A stretch of 33,620 nt of DNA from a bacterium 1XD21-70 (GTDB lineage: Bacteria > Bacillota > Clostridia > Lachnospirales > Lachnospiraceae), in contig RAYB01000050.1 in the NCBI GenBank assembly GCA_003669055.1, forward strand, positions 1-33,620, read 5' to 3'. Positions 1-31,493 of this stretch are shown one piece after another. Numbering within the stretch: position 1 is the first letter of the stretch; each line of letters begins with the position of its first letter. A program made the translations under genes and the position numbers. The notes beneath the pieces were generated by a model. The model had not been told where the DNA came from, searched no databases, and saw nothing but the letters and a program-made list of their open reading frames with translations.

Positions 1-264
1 AAATGCAGGCACCCCTCATTGTCCCCCGCCCCTGCCTCCTCTCCCCCCCTATGCGCTCGCCCTGCCGTGCCTCCCCCTGGGCTGCTTTAATTTCTGCCGT
101 TGCTGTTTAGTGTACACCATATACGTCAAGTGGCATCTATATTGGCAAACGCCAAAAGATGTCACTTGGGTCTAGACACTAGCTTTGCCAACTAAGAATC
201 ACGCAGCAGAAGGAAAGGGAGATAAGGAAAATAAAAGAACGTAATGGCAGCCAGTACAGCAGCG
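1..264. other. Gene-free leader region
   Basis: I see no supportable gene here. The first 90 bases are strongly C-rich on the plus strand, and the reading frames on either strand show no recognisable protein and no ribosome binding site. The only structure I can support is the short inverted repeat at 127-168. The first six bases resemble the edge of the long-hairpin core described at 265-463, which is discussed as a finding. Confidence 0.5.
127..168. repeat. Short imperfect hairpin
   Basis: The left arm begins CAAGTGGCATCT and the right arm ends AGATGTCACTTG. An inner TTGGC/GCCAA stem closes on an AAAC loop. The arms are complementary apart from one G-T type mismatch and a small bulge. No T-run follows, so it is not an obvious terminator. 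It may be an operator or an RNA structure; its role is unknown. Confidence 0.5.
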
Positions 265-463
265 TTTGTGGGAGGGGGATGGGCGGGGTGCATTTGCAGG
301 GATTTTAGGAGTTCTTAAGCTTACAGATTTTGCGTTAAAAAGAAAATGCATACTGTCTGAGCGCAGCGAGTTTATGCATTTTCTTTTTGCATTTAGCACA
401 ATCTGCAAGCTTTAGAAATCCTTCAATCCCGAAACAGCGCCCCGCCCATCCCCCTCCCACAAA
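265..463. repeat. Long-hairpin element, copy 1
   Basis: This 199-bp segment folds back on itself along nearly its whole length. The outer arms (265-288 and 440-463) are a perfect 24-bp inverted repeat made of G-rich/C-rich sequence. The inner arms (337-352 and 373-388) are a perfect 16-bp inverted repeat ending in ATGCATA. They close on the 20-nt loop CTGTCTGAGCGCAGCGAGTT. The middle sections pair imperfectly. The core is homologous to the element at 26969-27237, which lies in the opposite orientation, but the outer arms are unrelated in sequence. It encodes no protein. It sits just upstream of the promoter of the phosphate transporter gene. I do not recognise it as a named family. Confidence 0.8.
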
Positions 464-516
464 AGCGTCCCTTTATACGGGAATGGGTTGAAATAGAAGC
501 GTATTCTGTGGTATTA

Positions 517-26961: not shown

Positions 26962-26968
26962 GGGGTAC

Positions 26969-27237
26969 GCCCTGTGGAAACAAGACGGCGCAGGCTGCCG
27001 GCGGCAGGGCACAGGCTTTGTCTGCTTTGCGGTTTCGTGATTTAAGGGTTTCTAAAGCTTGGGGATTTTGTGAAGAGCGAAACAAAAATGCATAAACTCG
27101 CTGTGCTCAGACAGTATGCATTTTTGTTTCATCACAAAATCCCCAAACTTAAGAATCCCTAAAATCTCTGCAAATGCAAAGCAGACAGAATCTGTGCCCT
27201 GCCGCCGGCAGCCTGCGCCGTCTTGTTTCCACAGGGC
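26969..27237. repeat. Long-hairpin element, copy 2
   Basis: This 269-bp segment is an almost complete inverted repeat. The outer arms (26969-27014 and 27192-27237) are perfectly complementary over 46 bp and GC-rich. A second block TGTCTGCTTTGC (27020-27031) pairs with 27176-27187. The inner arms (27079-27094 and 27115-27130) are a perfect 16-bp inverted repeat ending in ATGCATA, around a 20-nt loop that is the reverse complement of the loop of copy 1 with one change. Core and middle sections are homologous to 265-463 in opposite orientation; the outer arms are unrelated. No protein is encoded. It lies between manA and the AT-rich accessory region and could stop transcription from both sides. 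Confidence 0.85.
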
Positions 27238-27295
27238 TGGATGCCTGCCTTTTTGTGCAAGGCGTAAACGTTCTTAAAAAATTTACAAAGAACTA

Positions 27296-27701: not shown

Positions 27702-28325
27702 ACTGTAGACAAAGTCCCGCATTTTTGTGCGGGATTTTTCTATGCCAAATGTCGTAAACTTCAGTGTTTATGCAGATTTTGGTGTACTTTTCTGGTATAT
27801 ATAGAAGCAACAAATCAAGGCAGGTATTTTTACTTATGATGACCCGGAATGCAGATAAAAAAAGAGGACAGGTGCAGTTTCTCTGCATGGATGACATGGC
27901 ACCACAGGATCACCTTCTACGAACCATAGACAAGGCGATTGGCTGGAACTTTATTTATGGCCTTGTAGCCGAAAAATATTCGCCGGACAATGGCCGCCCC
28001 AGTATGGATTCCATGATGCTGATCAAGATTCCTTTTATTCAGTATCTCTACGGAATCAAAAGCATGCGGCAGACCTGTAAGGAAATAGAGGTGAATGTTG
28101 CCTACAGATGGTTTCTTGGCTTGGATATGATGGATAAGGTGCCGCATTTTTCTACATTCGGAAAAAATTATACCAGACGATTTAAGGATACAGATCTTTT
28201 TGAACAGATATTCTCCCATATCCTGATGGAGTGTTATAAATTTAAACTCGTTGATCCCAGTGAGGTTTTTGTGGATGCCACTCATGTAAAGGCAAGGGCC
28301 AACAACAAAAAGATGCACAAACAAT
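27702..28325 (+). mobile_element. IS1182-type insertion sequence, left part only
   Basis: The segment holds a transposase start and its upstream end region. The left boundary is placed near the sequence CTGTAGACAAAGTCCCGC (about 27703), which looks like an IS end but is inferred. The right boundary is the point where the transposase reading frame leaves the family pattern, near 28320-28325. No matching right end is visible before the following element. Confidence 0.6.
27715..27739 (+). terminator. Terminator inside the IS left end
   Basis: TCCCGCA and TGCGGGA form a 7-bp stem over a T-rich 6-nt loop, followed by TTTTT. Such hairpins at IS ends can stop outside transcription from entering the transposase gene. 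Confidence 0.75.
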
Positions 28326-28327
28326 AA
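27836..28327 (+). pseudogene. Truncated IS1182 family transposase
   Basis: The frame gives 163 residues, while IS1182 transposases have about 450-550. The N-terminal domain is well preserved: QVQFLCMDDMAPQDHLLRTID, SMMLIKIPFIQYLYGIKSMR and NVAYRWFLGLDMMDKVPHFSTFGKNY. The first catalytic aspartate region is present as EVFVDATHVKARANNKK. The sequence then ends abruptly after KMHKQ with a stop codon. The remaining catalytic residues are absent, so the fragment cannot transpose. The break is where the next mobile element begins, which suggests that element inserted into or deleted the transposase. Confidence 0.88.
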
Positions 28328-28375
28328 AGTGCAGCACTACAGATCCTGAAAGCGGATGGTTCCGCAAAGGGTGAT

Positions 28376-28622
<247 letters not shown>

Positions 28623-29113: not shown

Positions 29114-30571
29114 TTATTTCTGCGGCTCGATGAACTGATATTTTCCTTTTCCGTATCCGCTGACAGCCACAATCAATCCAGCATTTTTCAGCTTGGTAAT
29201 GAGATTGCCGGCAGCGGTAACAGAATCATTTGTAATAGCAGCAATATCGGAACGACCGAAAATGCCGTCAATTCCCATGCTTGCATAGACGGCCATTGCC
29301 TTTTCAATCGTAGATTGGCTTGCGTTTAGTTTCCTAATCGCAACCTCAATCGCAACATGATCGGGGGCAATCGCAAGATTTTCATCCTGAATCGTAACCT
29401 TTGCTGCGTTTACTGCTGTACCGTAATTCAGATTATATAGCGTGACTTGGAAGAAGGTAACATCGGAATAGAACTTAGGCTCCAGTTCCGCACGGTAGTT
29501 ATGGGCGGCATAGTAGGCTTCCGTGATTTTCTTGAATCCGCTGCCTTGTCGCTCCATATATCCCAACCGGGCAAATACGTCTGCCAGAACCGGATTGCGC
29601 CGGGTGGAGGAAATATTGGATATATCTCTTTCCTGTATCCGAGTGCCGTCAGCCATACCGCCGGGAGAAGTAATTGTAAGACGGTCATCATAAATATCAA
29701 TATGGACTTCGCTGCCCAAAATGAGATAATCCCGGTGGATCAGCGCATTGACAAGAGCTTCAAAAACGCTTCGTTCACAATAATCGGGCATTTCAATACG
29801 AGAGTTGGCGGTTTTCTTCCAGCGGGTTTTCATATTCCGCTTTACAAATCCTACGCCCTCATTGAGCAGAATAATCAAGCTGCCGGAATATTCTGCGCTG
29901 TCGAGAGCATCCACCATGCCGCCGCTTTTATCTAAGCCGTTCCATCGTGTGCAGAACAGACGAGAATATCTGTTCGGGGAATCGTCCGCAAGCAAAGCGC
30001 CTGTATTGGTCAGCTTGCCATAGTTGTCCCTTATGTCAAAGGAATCGAACAGCTTATCTTCCATGCTGTTGCCCGTCCAGACCTTGTACCGTTCCCGCAG
30101 CTTGGAAAAGGCGTAATCCTTGAAATCATATTCAGAGGTCAGCGCATCAAAGGTGCGGTTCATACCCTTTAGAATAAGCTGATTCAGCACATAGGCGGGA
30201 GCAATCACACTTTCATTGCCAATGCGGATGTAGGCTTCCATTACGCCATCGGCCTTGTAATAATAAGGCGTTGTGCGTCCAACGGAAACGGTCAGCACCA
30301 GAAGATCCTTTCCGTTTTCTCTTTCGGGGGCAAGGATGAAATTGGGGTACGGTGTGATGCGCTCTTTAATCAGGCGGCTGATTGCCTCCGCATCGGTTTG
30401 TGCATCGGCAAGGCCAATTACATTCCGGTCATTATCAATGCCGAAGAACAGAGTGCCACCAATTCCGTTTGCAAAGGCACTGACACTTTTAAGCCAGCTT
30501 TTCGGTTTCTTCACTTCCAAAGCAACCTTGAAATCGCATTCCGTTGCTTCTGCAATCCATCTGTCTATCAT
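29114..30571 (-). CDS. AlbA_2/Schlafen-type protein with GHKL-like domain (RecG-like C-terminus)
   Basis: The 485-residue protein starts with an AlbA_2 (Schlafen-type) putative nucleic-acid-binding domain, residues 1-120. It contains VSAFANGIGGTLFFGIDNDRNVIGL, quoted here only in its key part FANGIGGTLFFGID. The middle has a HATPase_c_4-like region with VFEALVNALIHRDY, YDDRLTITSPGGM and RRNPVLADVFARLGYMERQGSG. The C-terminal 70 residues look like a winged helix. Such proteins are often called RecG-like but have no helicase motor. I chose ATG 30571, with AAAGGAAG upstream. It begins 20 bp after the zinc-finger gene stop, and the two share a promoter. The role is probably regulatory or defensive; that is an inference. 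Confidence 0.85.
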   Translation of the reverse strand: MIDRWIAEATECDFKVALEVKKPKSWLKSVSAFANGIGGTLFFGIDNDRNVIGLADAQTDAEAISRLIKERITPYPNFILAPERENGKDLLVLTVSVGRTTPYYYKADGVMEAYIRIGNESVIAPAYVLNQLILKGMNRTFDALTSEYDFKDYAFSKLRERYKVWTGNSMEDKLFDSFDIRDNYGKLTNTGALLADDSPNRYSRLFCTRWNGLDKSGGMVDALDSAEYSGSLIILLNEGVGFVKRNMKTRWKKTANSRIEMPDYCERSVFEALVNALIHRDYLILGSEVHIDIYDDRLTITSPGGMADGTRIQERDISNISSTRRNPVLADVFARLGYMERQGSGFKKITEAYYAAHNYRAELEPKFYSDVTFFQVTLYNLNYGTAVNAAKVTIQDENLAIAPDHVAIEVAIRKLNASQSTIEKAMAVYASMGIDGIFGRSDIAAITNDSVTAAGNLITKLKNAGLIVAVSGYGKGKYQFIEPQK

Positions 30572-30590
30572 AAATTCGCTTCCTTTCCCA

Positions 30591-31493
30591 TCATTCCTTC
30601 TTATCCTTTGCCCGGCTCTTATAAACATTGTACTTATTCTTACACTGGGGGCTACAAAATACAGCGCTCGGTCTGCTTGCGACAAATGCTTTGGTGCAAT
30701 GCCTGCAAAGGCGGATCGGATTCTCGCTGTCGGTCAGCATGAAACTGAACATCATCTGTATACCAAGCAGCAGCGAATGAAAATCCCATACGATTGTCGG
30801 CTTGTCCAGCAGGGCGATGTGGTAGGTAGGCGCATTGCCGCCAAACGCTGCCATGCTCTCCTGCATGATCTGCCGGGTATCTTCATCCAGCGTGTCGTAG
30901 TCCTCGTAGTAGAGGAAACTGTTGACATAGGTAAATGCCCAATCAATAAACTGCTGCTTCATCCAGTCATAGCGTTCAGCATACTCCTGCTGAAAGCTCA
31001 TATTGACCGCCATGGGCTTATCTGTCATGGTCATGGCTAGTGCCATCATAATGCGGTCATTCTGAATATTCCACATGGACTCTACGCCACGCTTGATAAC
31101 ATCCAGCTTATCAAAAGGAAAGAACAAATCCAGATAGTCCTCCGTGGACATGGTTTCCTCTTTGATGAAATGATTTTTCGGCAGATATACCGCTTCATAG
31201 TCCATAAAGCTTGGCGTGGTCGGCAGCGCAGTCATCAGACCAAACAGGCCGAACTTTACGGCAAACTGCTGGATCGCCTTTTGGATTTCCGCATCTGGCT
31301 TCTTGCCCATACCCATGCGTCCGATGTTGATGGCATCCAGGACGATCCGCTGATACTCCGCCAGCGGGTCATAGATGCTCGGCTGTGCTGTTTTTGCGGG
31401 CGTGAGATATAAGGTGCCGTCTTCCGCCGCTTTCCATTCGTATTCACTATATCGCACCCAACCCATGCTGGTGCGTTCAAACAGGTTTTTCAT
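30591..31493 (-). CDS. Zinc-finger protein of integrative elements (DUF6076-like)
   Basis: The 300-residue protein has no enzyme motif that I recognise. The C-terminal LCRHCTKAF and FCSPQCKNKYNVYKSR form a four-cysteine CGNR-type zinc finger, which suggests nucleic-acid binding. The preceding 250 residues are mostly helical, with many tryptophans and acidic residues. Proteins of this type appear as cargo of clostridial integrative elements. ATG 31493 has GGAGGG upstream; a TTG two codons earlier is less likely. The AlbA_2-type gene follows closely, so they are one operon. The DUF number is from memory of the family and less certain than the zinc finger. Confidence 0.7.
   Translation of the reverse strand: MKNLFERTSMGWVRYSEYEWKAAEDGTLYLTPAKTAQPSIYDPLAEYQRIVLDAINIGRMGMGKKPDAEIQKAIQQFAVKFGLFGLMTALPTTPSFMDYEAVYLPKNHFIKEETMSTEDYLDLFFPFDKLDVIKRGVESMWNIQNDRIMMALAMTMTDKPMAVNMSFQQEYAERYDWMKQQFIDWAFTYVNSFLYYEDYDTLDEDTRQIMQESMAAFGGNAPTYHIALLDKPTIVWDFHSLLLGIQMMFSFMLTDSENPIRLCRHCTKAFVASRPSAVFCSPQCKNKYNVYKSRAKDKKE

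What the first reader, a model, noticed from the sequence alone, without database searches (positions are those of the whole stretch)
265..463. Long-hairpin family with a shared core and loop but locus-specific perfect arms
Copies at 265-463 and 26969-27237 share a 20-nt loop (one difference) and homologous middle sections in opposite orientation. Inside each copy both arms match each other perfectly, yet the outer 24-bp and 46-bp arms are unrelated between copies. The inner 16-bp arms differ between copies at several positions, each compensated on the other strand. An ordinary MITE would carry the same ends at every site. Here the ends look copied from, or matched to, the local flank. Possible explanations are a mobile element that makes a palindrome of its flank during insertion, or selection for a long structured RNA.
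Basis: seen in the sequence. Interest (0 to 1): 0.72.

Follow-up and report, generated by a model that had tools for sequence, protein, structure and literature searches.

The report
Mobile DNA hairpins with self-matching arms
These are short mobile pieces of bacterial DNA that fold into a long hairpin with a shared tip found in several bacterial phyla; each copy has its own arm sequence, yet its two arms stay almost exact mirror images, most likely because DNA copying keeps rewriting one arm from the other.

Summary
The window's genome has at least 21 copies (20, plus L286). They share a ~150-nt imperfect hairpin core and the apex AAACTCGCTNCGCTCAGACAG. Outer arms differ between loci but match within a copy: 29 mismatches in 1018 pairs, 19 copies.

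The flank-copy idea fails. In a Hungatella-type genus the element is a ~289-bp palindrome with an 8-bp target duplication (7/8 or better in 36 of 54 copies). Two empty orthologous sites lack both arms.

Selection for an RNA is not favoured for the arms: no G·U excess on the loop strand, and 50 of 133 mirrored changes are transversions. I favour a non-autonomous mobile hairpin whose arms are homogenised at DNA level by template switching.

The apex occurs in several phyla: at least 120 genome stretches (capped); 103 of 110 testable hits pair next to it. None found in viral contigs (exact pattern) or E. coli (blastn).

Unresolved: no transposase found. Y1/HUH and IS66 domains are each missing from 5 of 9 carriers tested. 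The window genome's own copies show no target duplication.

The parts
265..463 (-). Copy 1 of the hairpin element, from outer arm to outer arm (apex strand is minus)
   Evidence: L007, palindrome length 199
265..288 (.). Copy 1 outer arm (3' side on the apex strand), locus-specific
440..463 (.). Copy 1 outer arm (5' side on the apex strand), complementary to 265-288
353..373 (-). Copy 1 apex AAACTCGCTGCGCTCAGACAG
   Evidence: 31-nt match 347-377
464..470 (-). Copy 1 outer left end GGGACGC, a diverged form of GGTACGCC
   Evidence: compared by eye with the other copies
250..264 (-). Copy 1 outer right end CGCTGCTGTACTGGC, a diverged form of GGCTGTTTGCTGGC
   Evidence: compared by eye
26969..27237 (+). 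Copy 2 of the hairpin element, from outer arm to outer arm
   Evidence: L014
26969..27030 (.). Copy 2 outer arm, 5' side (62 nt, 95% complementary to 27176-27237)
   Evidence: 3 mismatches in 60 pairs
27176..27237 (.). Copy 2 outer arm, 3' side
27094..27114 (+). Copy 2 apex AAACTCGCTGTGCTCAGACAG
   Evidence: 31-nt match 27090-27120
26962..26971 (+). Copy 2 conserved left end GGGGTACGCC, just behind the stop codon of the upstream mannose-6-phosphate isomerase-type gene
27235..27249 (+). Copy 2 right end GGCTGGATGCCTGCC (form of GGCTGTTTGCTGGC)

Best explanation
A non-autonomous, MITE-like mobile element built as one long DNA hairpin: short ends, a hypervariable self-complementary arm, and a conserved core with fixed internal loops and a 21-nt apex. 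Shown: insertion as a unit at new sites, with an 8-bp target duplication in the Hungatella-type genus. Inferred: a protein supplied in trans recognises the ends and/or the conserved core and apex. Inferred: because the two arms are adjacent inverted repeats, replication template switching (or hairpin-templated repair) rewrites one arm from the other. A mutation in one arm is then erased or mirrored, so arms drift apart between loci but stay matched within each copy, terminal repeats included. The core is kept in sequence, probably because copies without it no longer move (inferred).
For: 20 + 1 copies in the genome, reversed control 0. 8-bp target duplications at 7/8 or better in 36 of 54 g81 copies, and 23 of 30 at 6/8 or better with ends set by the terminal repeat alone. 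Empty site of L230 in G107 with a single target copy; empty site of L020 in G017. Between-copy arm difference median 45%, within-copy median 1.5% (48 of 54 copies). 133 mirrored against 52 single-arm deviations in the three largest arm clusters (31 copies). Mirrored changes include 50 transversions of 133, not fewer than in target duplications (8 of 32; p 0.22). Arm mismatch rate similar in copies with intact and with decayed duplications (2.4, 3.35, 2.9%). Template switching between inverted-repeat arms is described in PMC8604942 and PMC8794818 (abstracts seen).
Against: No transposase was identified. G000 copies show no target duplication and no duplication signal was found in the 111 copies tested from the genome-wide scan and two relatives. 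The conserved internal mismatches of the core, even single T.G pairs, are not homogenised, so the process must spare the core or selection must restore it. Core divergence does not rise with duplication decay either, so the duplication is a poor clock. Single-arm mismatches are poor in transversions (10 of 82 in g81, 0 of 29 in G000), and A.C exceeds G.T on the apex strand (63 to 38, p 0.017), which leaves room for pairing selection on the opposite strand. No orthologous copy pair could be compared between genomes.
Confidence: 0.62

Rival explanations
1. Palindrome made at transposition: the element moves as a folded single strand or through a half-element, and the second arm is re-synthesised by fold-back copying at each move. 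Arms are perfect at birth and decay afterwards.
For: Arms and terminal repeats match within a copy and differ between copies. Internal loops of the core are kept while the outer arms match, as if only the outer arm were re-made. In the youngest-looking cluster mirrored and single deviations are about equal (22 to 19).
Against: Arm mismatches do not rise with decay of the target duplication, and the duplications differ more than the arms (36 of 296 sites in 37 of 54 copies, against 82 of 2526 pairs). No known machinery was found.
Confidence: 0.2
2. Structured RNA under selection: the hairpin is transcribed (many copies sit in sense just behind a stop codon) and compensatory changes are selected to keep the stem.
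For: 21 of 50 core pairs with changes on both sides in G000 (19 copies) and 12 of 43 in the Ralstonia group (12 copies). Position behind stop codons. Single-arm mismatches are mostly transitions, and A.C (G.U on the other strand) is in mild excess, p 0.017. Core conserved with fixed internal loops.
Against: No G.U excess on the apex strand, the strand that is sense in the copies behind stop codons. Mirrored changes are rich in transversions (50 of 133), which stepwise selection through wobble pairs should make rare. Arm sequence and length vary freely. No Rfam match. Sporadic distribution, 15 of 397 genomes of the family with the exact apex.
Confidence: 0.12
3. A mobile element that copies its local flank into a palindrome on insertion.
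For: Arms differ from site to site.
Against: Arms lie inside the element's ends, with the target duplication outside. Empty sites in G107 and G017 contain neither arm. In g81 the arms fall into clusters shared by copies at unrelated sites.
Confidence: 0.03
4. REP/REPIN-type repeats moved by a Y1 (HUH) RAYT transposase.
For: Hairpin DNA, no coding capacity, intergenic, multi-copy.
Against: PF01797 missing from 5 of 9 carriers tested. The one G000 match ends in a YIQNQ-type motif, the IS200 rather than the RAYT pattern by the table in PMC6006769 (passages seen). An 8-bp duplication is not what I recall for that class.
Confidence: 0.03

Closest known systems
Bacterial MITEs (non-autonomous TIR elements), in particular ones with IS66-like hallmarks
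   Same: No coding gene seen, terminal inverted repeats, 8-bp target duplication in g81, internal-deletion derivatives with the same ends. IS66 copies in the family also have GTA-type ends and 8-bp duplications (L249; L334).
   Different: The whole element is one palindrome with a conserved apex and core; the arms and even the terminal repeats differ between copies and change in step. The IS66 ends seen (GTACATGG.., GTAAGCGCC..) are not the hairpin's ends, and no partner IS was found. G000 copies have no duplication.
REP sequences / REPINs with RAYT transposases
   Same: Intergenic multi-copy hairpin DNA without genes.
   Different: Much longer, fixed 21-nt apex, 8-bp duplication in g81; Y1 domain missing from 5 of 9 carriers tested.
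Selfish palindromic repeats of organelle genomes (Volvox; Allomyces double-hairpin elements)
   Same: Mobile hairpins of 11-77 nt with a recurrent loop and variable stems in Volvox (PMC2670323, passages seen). Allomyces: title seen in its reference list, contents recalled.
   Different: Those are far shorter with 3-5-nt loops in Volvox, and organellar; no target duplication or arm statistics were compared here.
Inverted repeats homogenised by replication template switching
   Same: Arm homogenisation and multi-base compensatory changes without selection (PMC8604942, PMC8794818; abstracts seen).
   Different: Reported in those abstracts for yeast coding DNA and for RNA genes; here it would act on dozens of copies of a mobile element, including its terminal repeats.
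Long perfect coding palindromes of Nematomorpha mitochondria
   Same: Long perfect inverted repeats (up to 284 bp) kept in evolution (PMC6649704, abstract seen).
   Different: Not mobile, no shared apex, inside protein genes.

Membership tests
Bacterial MITE | Terminal inverted repeats and a fixed-length target duplication | tested here: met
   g81: 8 bp at 7/8 or better in 36 of 54 copies; not seen in G000 copies nor in the wider set of 111
Bacterial MITE | Short, no transposase gene inside | tested here: met
   Elements of about 190-325 bp in G000 and g81
Bacterial MITE | An autonomous IS with the same ends | tested here: not met
   None found at the solitary ends fetched or for the IS66 copies inspected; the search was not exhaustive
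IS66-family derivative | Ends beginning GTA(A), 8-bp duplication (recalled; two local IS66 copies agree) | tested here: inconclusive
   GT[AT]AC ends and 8-bp duplication in g81, but end sequence differs from local IS66
IS66-family derivative | IS66 transposase in carrier genomes | tested here: not met
   PF03050 in 4 of 9 carriers tested; 0 in G000, G033, G445, G271, G347
REP/REPIN with RAYT | Y1 (HUH) RAYT in carrier genomes | tested here: not met
   PF01797 in 4 of 9 carriers tested
Known structured RNA (Rfam 15) | Match at gathering score | tested here: not met
   0 matches in window, L003, L008, L019; best chance-level match E 0.48
RNA stem under selection | G.U excess over A.C among mismatches on the transcribed strand | tested here: not met
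   Apex strand: G.T 38, A.C 63 over 67 copies; the opposite strand would show a mild excess (p 0.017)
Template-switch-homogenised inverted repeat | Mirrored changes of all base-change types | tested here: met
   133 mirrored changes, 50 transversions, in 31 copies; no difference from target duplications (p 0.22)
Template-switch-homogenised inverted repeat | Homogenisation seen after insertion at one site | tested here: inconclusive
   Flat arm mismatch rate across duplication decay, but the duplication is a poor clock and no orthologous copies were found
Integron attC site | R''/R' core sites and an integron integrase | not tested
   No call made; considered only by analogy

The most novel reading that the evidence does not exclude
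A cross-phylum class of mobile hairpin DNA that moves in folded form: the 21-nt apex and the fixed internal loops are the recognition device of an unknown mobilising protein, and one arm serves as the template from which the other is rewritten at each move or replication, so that even the terminal repeats evolve as a single sequence.
Probability: 0.25. Interest if true: 0.85.

Novelty: new variant of a known kind. Interest (0 to 1): 0.62.

Why it matters
Compensatory changes in both arms of a stem are the usual proof of a functional RNA. Here 67 copies in two genome groups (48 in g81; 19 in G000) show that pattern, apparently produced by DNA copying in a mobile element, so such covariation can mislead RNA discovery. 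The family also offers a natural record on which template switching can be measured in bacteria, with target duplications beside the arms. The 21-nt apex held between distant phyla, but not found in the viral contigs and E. coli genomes searched, points to an unidentified recognition partner. I found no description of the motif in the held open-access papers (letter searches; topic searches; listings seen); most subscription papers are not held.

Tried and rejected
Flank-derived palindrome: rejected by two empty sites. RAYT/IS200 as driver: Y1 domain missing from 5 of 9 carriers tested (a 36-genome survey). IS66 as driver of all: missing from the same number of carriers, and its ends differ; the other carriers were not tested. 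Linked gene: clustering of 3320 ORFs from the 143 loci then held gave one large cluster (14 loci) that I did not identify, and otherwise groups of at most 5 loci. Known RNA: Rfam negative. Copy 2 site in relatives: regions behind the orthologous gene are not conserved, so no empty site could be read. Orthologous insertions shared by G421 and G107: none among the loci held; only the LysR locus L320/L326, with solitary half-arms, matched over more than 330 bp. Empty-site queries: of three g81 loci asked (L230, L232, L281) one gave a readable empty site, one matched on the right flank only, one not at all; of three G000 loci (L003, L006, L020) against five relatives only L020 in G017 had both flanks joined, and about 100 nt of its G000 right flank is also absent from G017; L006 had two separate flank matches in G014 that I did not read further. 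Target duplication in the wider set: no signal in 111 copies. Plasmid and phage look-ups gave little; three Escherichia records match 23 nt at 91% with E 3, which I take as chance. One search printed no alignment; one search failed only when saving, after its results were printed. In one search my script dropped three g81 copies (L278, L283, L284) whose 140-nt core equals that of L264; checked later, two of the three have an 8/8 duplication and one has not.

Full report
WHAT IS THERE. The window holds two copies of one element, at 265-463 (apex strand minus) and 26969-27237 (plus). Both hairpins are far outside chance. A scan of the window's own genome (G000, 4.31 Mb, 137 contigs) with the 31-nt apex, up to 3 mismatches, gave 20 copies; the reversed control gave 0. 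One further copy with an exact 21-nt apex came (L286, fetched). The copies whose folds I could see (its output was cut) form one long hairpin, except L004, which is cut by a contig end.

ANATOMY. From outside in: a left end GGGGTACGCC, often with a G-run, and a right end GGCTGTTTGCTGGC, both diverged in some copies; a locus-specific arm of roughly 20-90 bp; an internal loop (GGTTTC against TGCAAA); stems that vary with compensated changes; further fixed internal loops; and the apex AAACTCGCTNCGCTCAGACAG. For 19 of the 20 copies (L004 left out) the core alignment has 50 consensus pairs, 21 of them with changes on both sides. Arms of the same 19 copies: 1018 pairs, 29 mismatches, all transitions.

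SPREAD. The titles shown (80 of 120) include Bacteroidales and Flavobacteriales, Gamma- and Betaproteobacteria, Clostridia and Selenomonas, Nitrospirae, Thermotoga and Deltaproteobacteria; Ilyobacter (Fusobacteriota) was seen on a megaplasmid. By my own arithmetic about one chance match is expected in that collection. Of 127 hits in these stretches, 110 had full flanks; 91 paired better than all 40 shuffles and 103 paired within 8 nt of the apex. Compensated variation is also present in the Ralstonia group (12 of 43 pairs, 12 copies), where one copy (L104, minus strand) has two unlike arms and looks recombinant. In the window's family 15 of 397 genomes sampled carry the exact apex. No hit in viral contigs (exact pattern), none in E. 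coli genomes (blastn), 3 and 10 plasmid records at loose E-values and one phage record.

IT MOVES. Two genomes of one genus in the same family hold 49 and 8 copies at up to one mismatch; I call this group g81. Of these 57 copies 54 entered the analysis; three were dropped by my script as core duplicates of L264 and were checked later. The element is typically 289 bp and palindromic from end to end, with GT[AT]AC... ends. 36 of 54 copies show an 8-bp target duplication at 7/8 or better when the best of 15 offsets is taken, and 23 of 30 at 6/8 or better when ends were set by the terminal repeat alone. The same ends also bound core-deleted palindromes of 74-91 bp with duplications (L309-L311) and a 151-bp element that is not one long palindrome (L287, L318). 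The empty site of L230 in G107 has one copy of the target and neither arm. In the window's own genus, the site of L020 is empty in G017; that alignment is not clean at the junction.

ARMS. In 48 of the 54 g81 copies (six had unclear ends) the left arms of different copies differ by a median of 45%, while the two arms of one copy differ by a median of 1.5%. The terminal repeats themselves change in step on both sides (GTAACAG, GTTACCG, GTTACTG, GTAACTA). Within the three largest clusters (31 copies) 133 deviations are mirrored, 52 are on one arm only and 4 differ on both arms. Mismatch types in arms: G.T 27 and A.C 45 in g81, 11 and 18 in G000. The arm mismatch rate does not rise as duplications decay (2.4, 3.35, 2.9%), although duplications differ at 36 of 296 sites in the 37 of 54 copies with clear ends. 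The core does not diverge with duplication decay either, so the duplication is a poor clock and I do not lean on it alone.

WHY DNA LEVEL. Under selection for an RNA stem, mirrored changes should pass mostly through G.U pairs and be mostly transitions, and single mismatches on the transcribed strand should be mostly G.U. Instead 50 of 133 mirrored changes are transversions, not fewer than in the target duplications (8 of 32; p 0.22), and G.U does not exceed A.C on the apex strand. Against this: single-arm mismatches are poor in transversions (10 of 82, and 0 of 29; mirrored against single p 4e-5) and A.C is in mild excess (63 to 38, p 0.017; also 218 to 150 in the wider set of 111, core positions included). 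Some selection or strand bias on the opposite strand therefore remains possible. Template switching between inverted-repeat arms is an established process (PMC8604942, PMC8794818; abstracts) and explains arm matching without function.

WHERE IT SITS. With simple ORF calls, sense copies start close behind the stop codon: g81, 24 copies, median 9.5 nt; the 27 copies whose left neighbour points away start at a median of 95 nt from it (3 undecided). In G000, 9 of 10 sense copies start 7-27 nt after the stop, 8 of 19 have a divergent left neighbour and one is undecided. In the wider set the bias is weaker (49 sense, 35 antisense left neighbours where one was called). This can be target choice or survival of harmless insertions.

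WHAT MOVES IT. Unknown. PF01797 is present in 4 of 9 carriers tested and PF03050 in 4 of 9, none in G000. IS66 copies in the family share the style (GTA ends, 8-bp duplication) but not the end sequence. No neighbour gene pointed to a mobiliser. G000 copies have no duplication, so they may be older, or inserted by another route.

VERDICT. A mobile, gene-less hairpin element with concerted arms. Mobility is well shown in g81 and supported in G000; arm homogenisation at DNA level is likely; the recognition role of core and apex is inferred. Novelty: a new variant of MITE-like elements, with an apex whose breadth is unexplained.

Noticed in passing
window 27764-28327 (+): ORF with a DUF772 transposase domain (PF05598) some 500 bp behind copy 2; its element was not delimited.
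   Followed up: no
window 28372-28448: Another inverted repeat, arms of 25 nt, 88% complementary, 27 nt apart, near the DUF772 ORF.
   Followed up: no
window 29114-30685 (-): ORF with Schlafen AlbA_2 and RecG-type ATPase domains (PF04326, PF13749).
   Followed up: no
L287, L289, L298, L302, L318 (G421 and G107): A 151-bp element with the same GTAACAGTTCAG ends and 6/8-7/8 duplications but its own short hairpins: probably a second non-autonomous family moved by the same enzyme.
   Followed up: partly
L309, L310, L311, L313 (G421): Palindromes with the same ends and duplications from which the core or apex has been deleted (74, 81, 91 and 238 bp).
   Followed up: partly
L320 (G107) and L326 (G421): Orthologous sites behind a LysR-type gene that each carry a solitary half-arm with the terminal repeat, of different sequence.
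   Followed up: partly
L104 minus-strand copy (Ralstonia group): Left arm of one type and right arm of another: a likely recombinant hairpin.
   Followed up: no
G000 contigs C63, C37, C74: Copies lie at contig starts (L004, L018), and the end of C74 carries an arm and part of a core, so the assembly breaks at hairpins and the copy number is a lower bound.
   Followed up: no
right flanks of L005, L006, L020 (G000): Long G-rich, C-poor stretches between the element and the next promoter; about 100 nt of that of L020 is absent from the empty site in G017.
   Followed up: no
L330, L331, L332 (G107): A 1900-bp segment in three almost identical copies with a distant IS66-type domain (PF03050, E 5.7e-8); ends not resolved.
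   Followed up: partly
L249 (G014) and L334 (G107): IS66 elements with clear ends and 8/8 duplications (GTACATGG.., 2434 bp; GTAAGCGCC.., 2917 bp).
   Followed up: yes
L329 (Ilyobacter polytropus plasmid pILYOP01): Seven or eight apex matches on one 0.96-Mb megaplasmid; their arms were not analysed.
   Followed up: no
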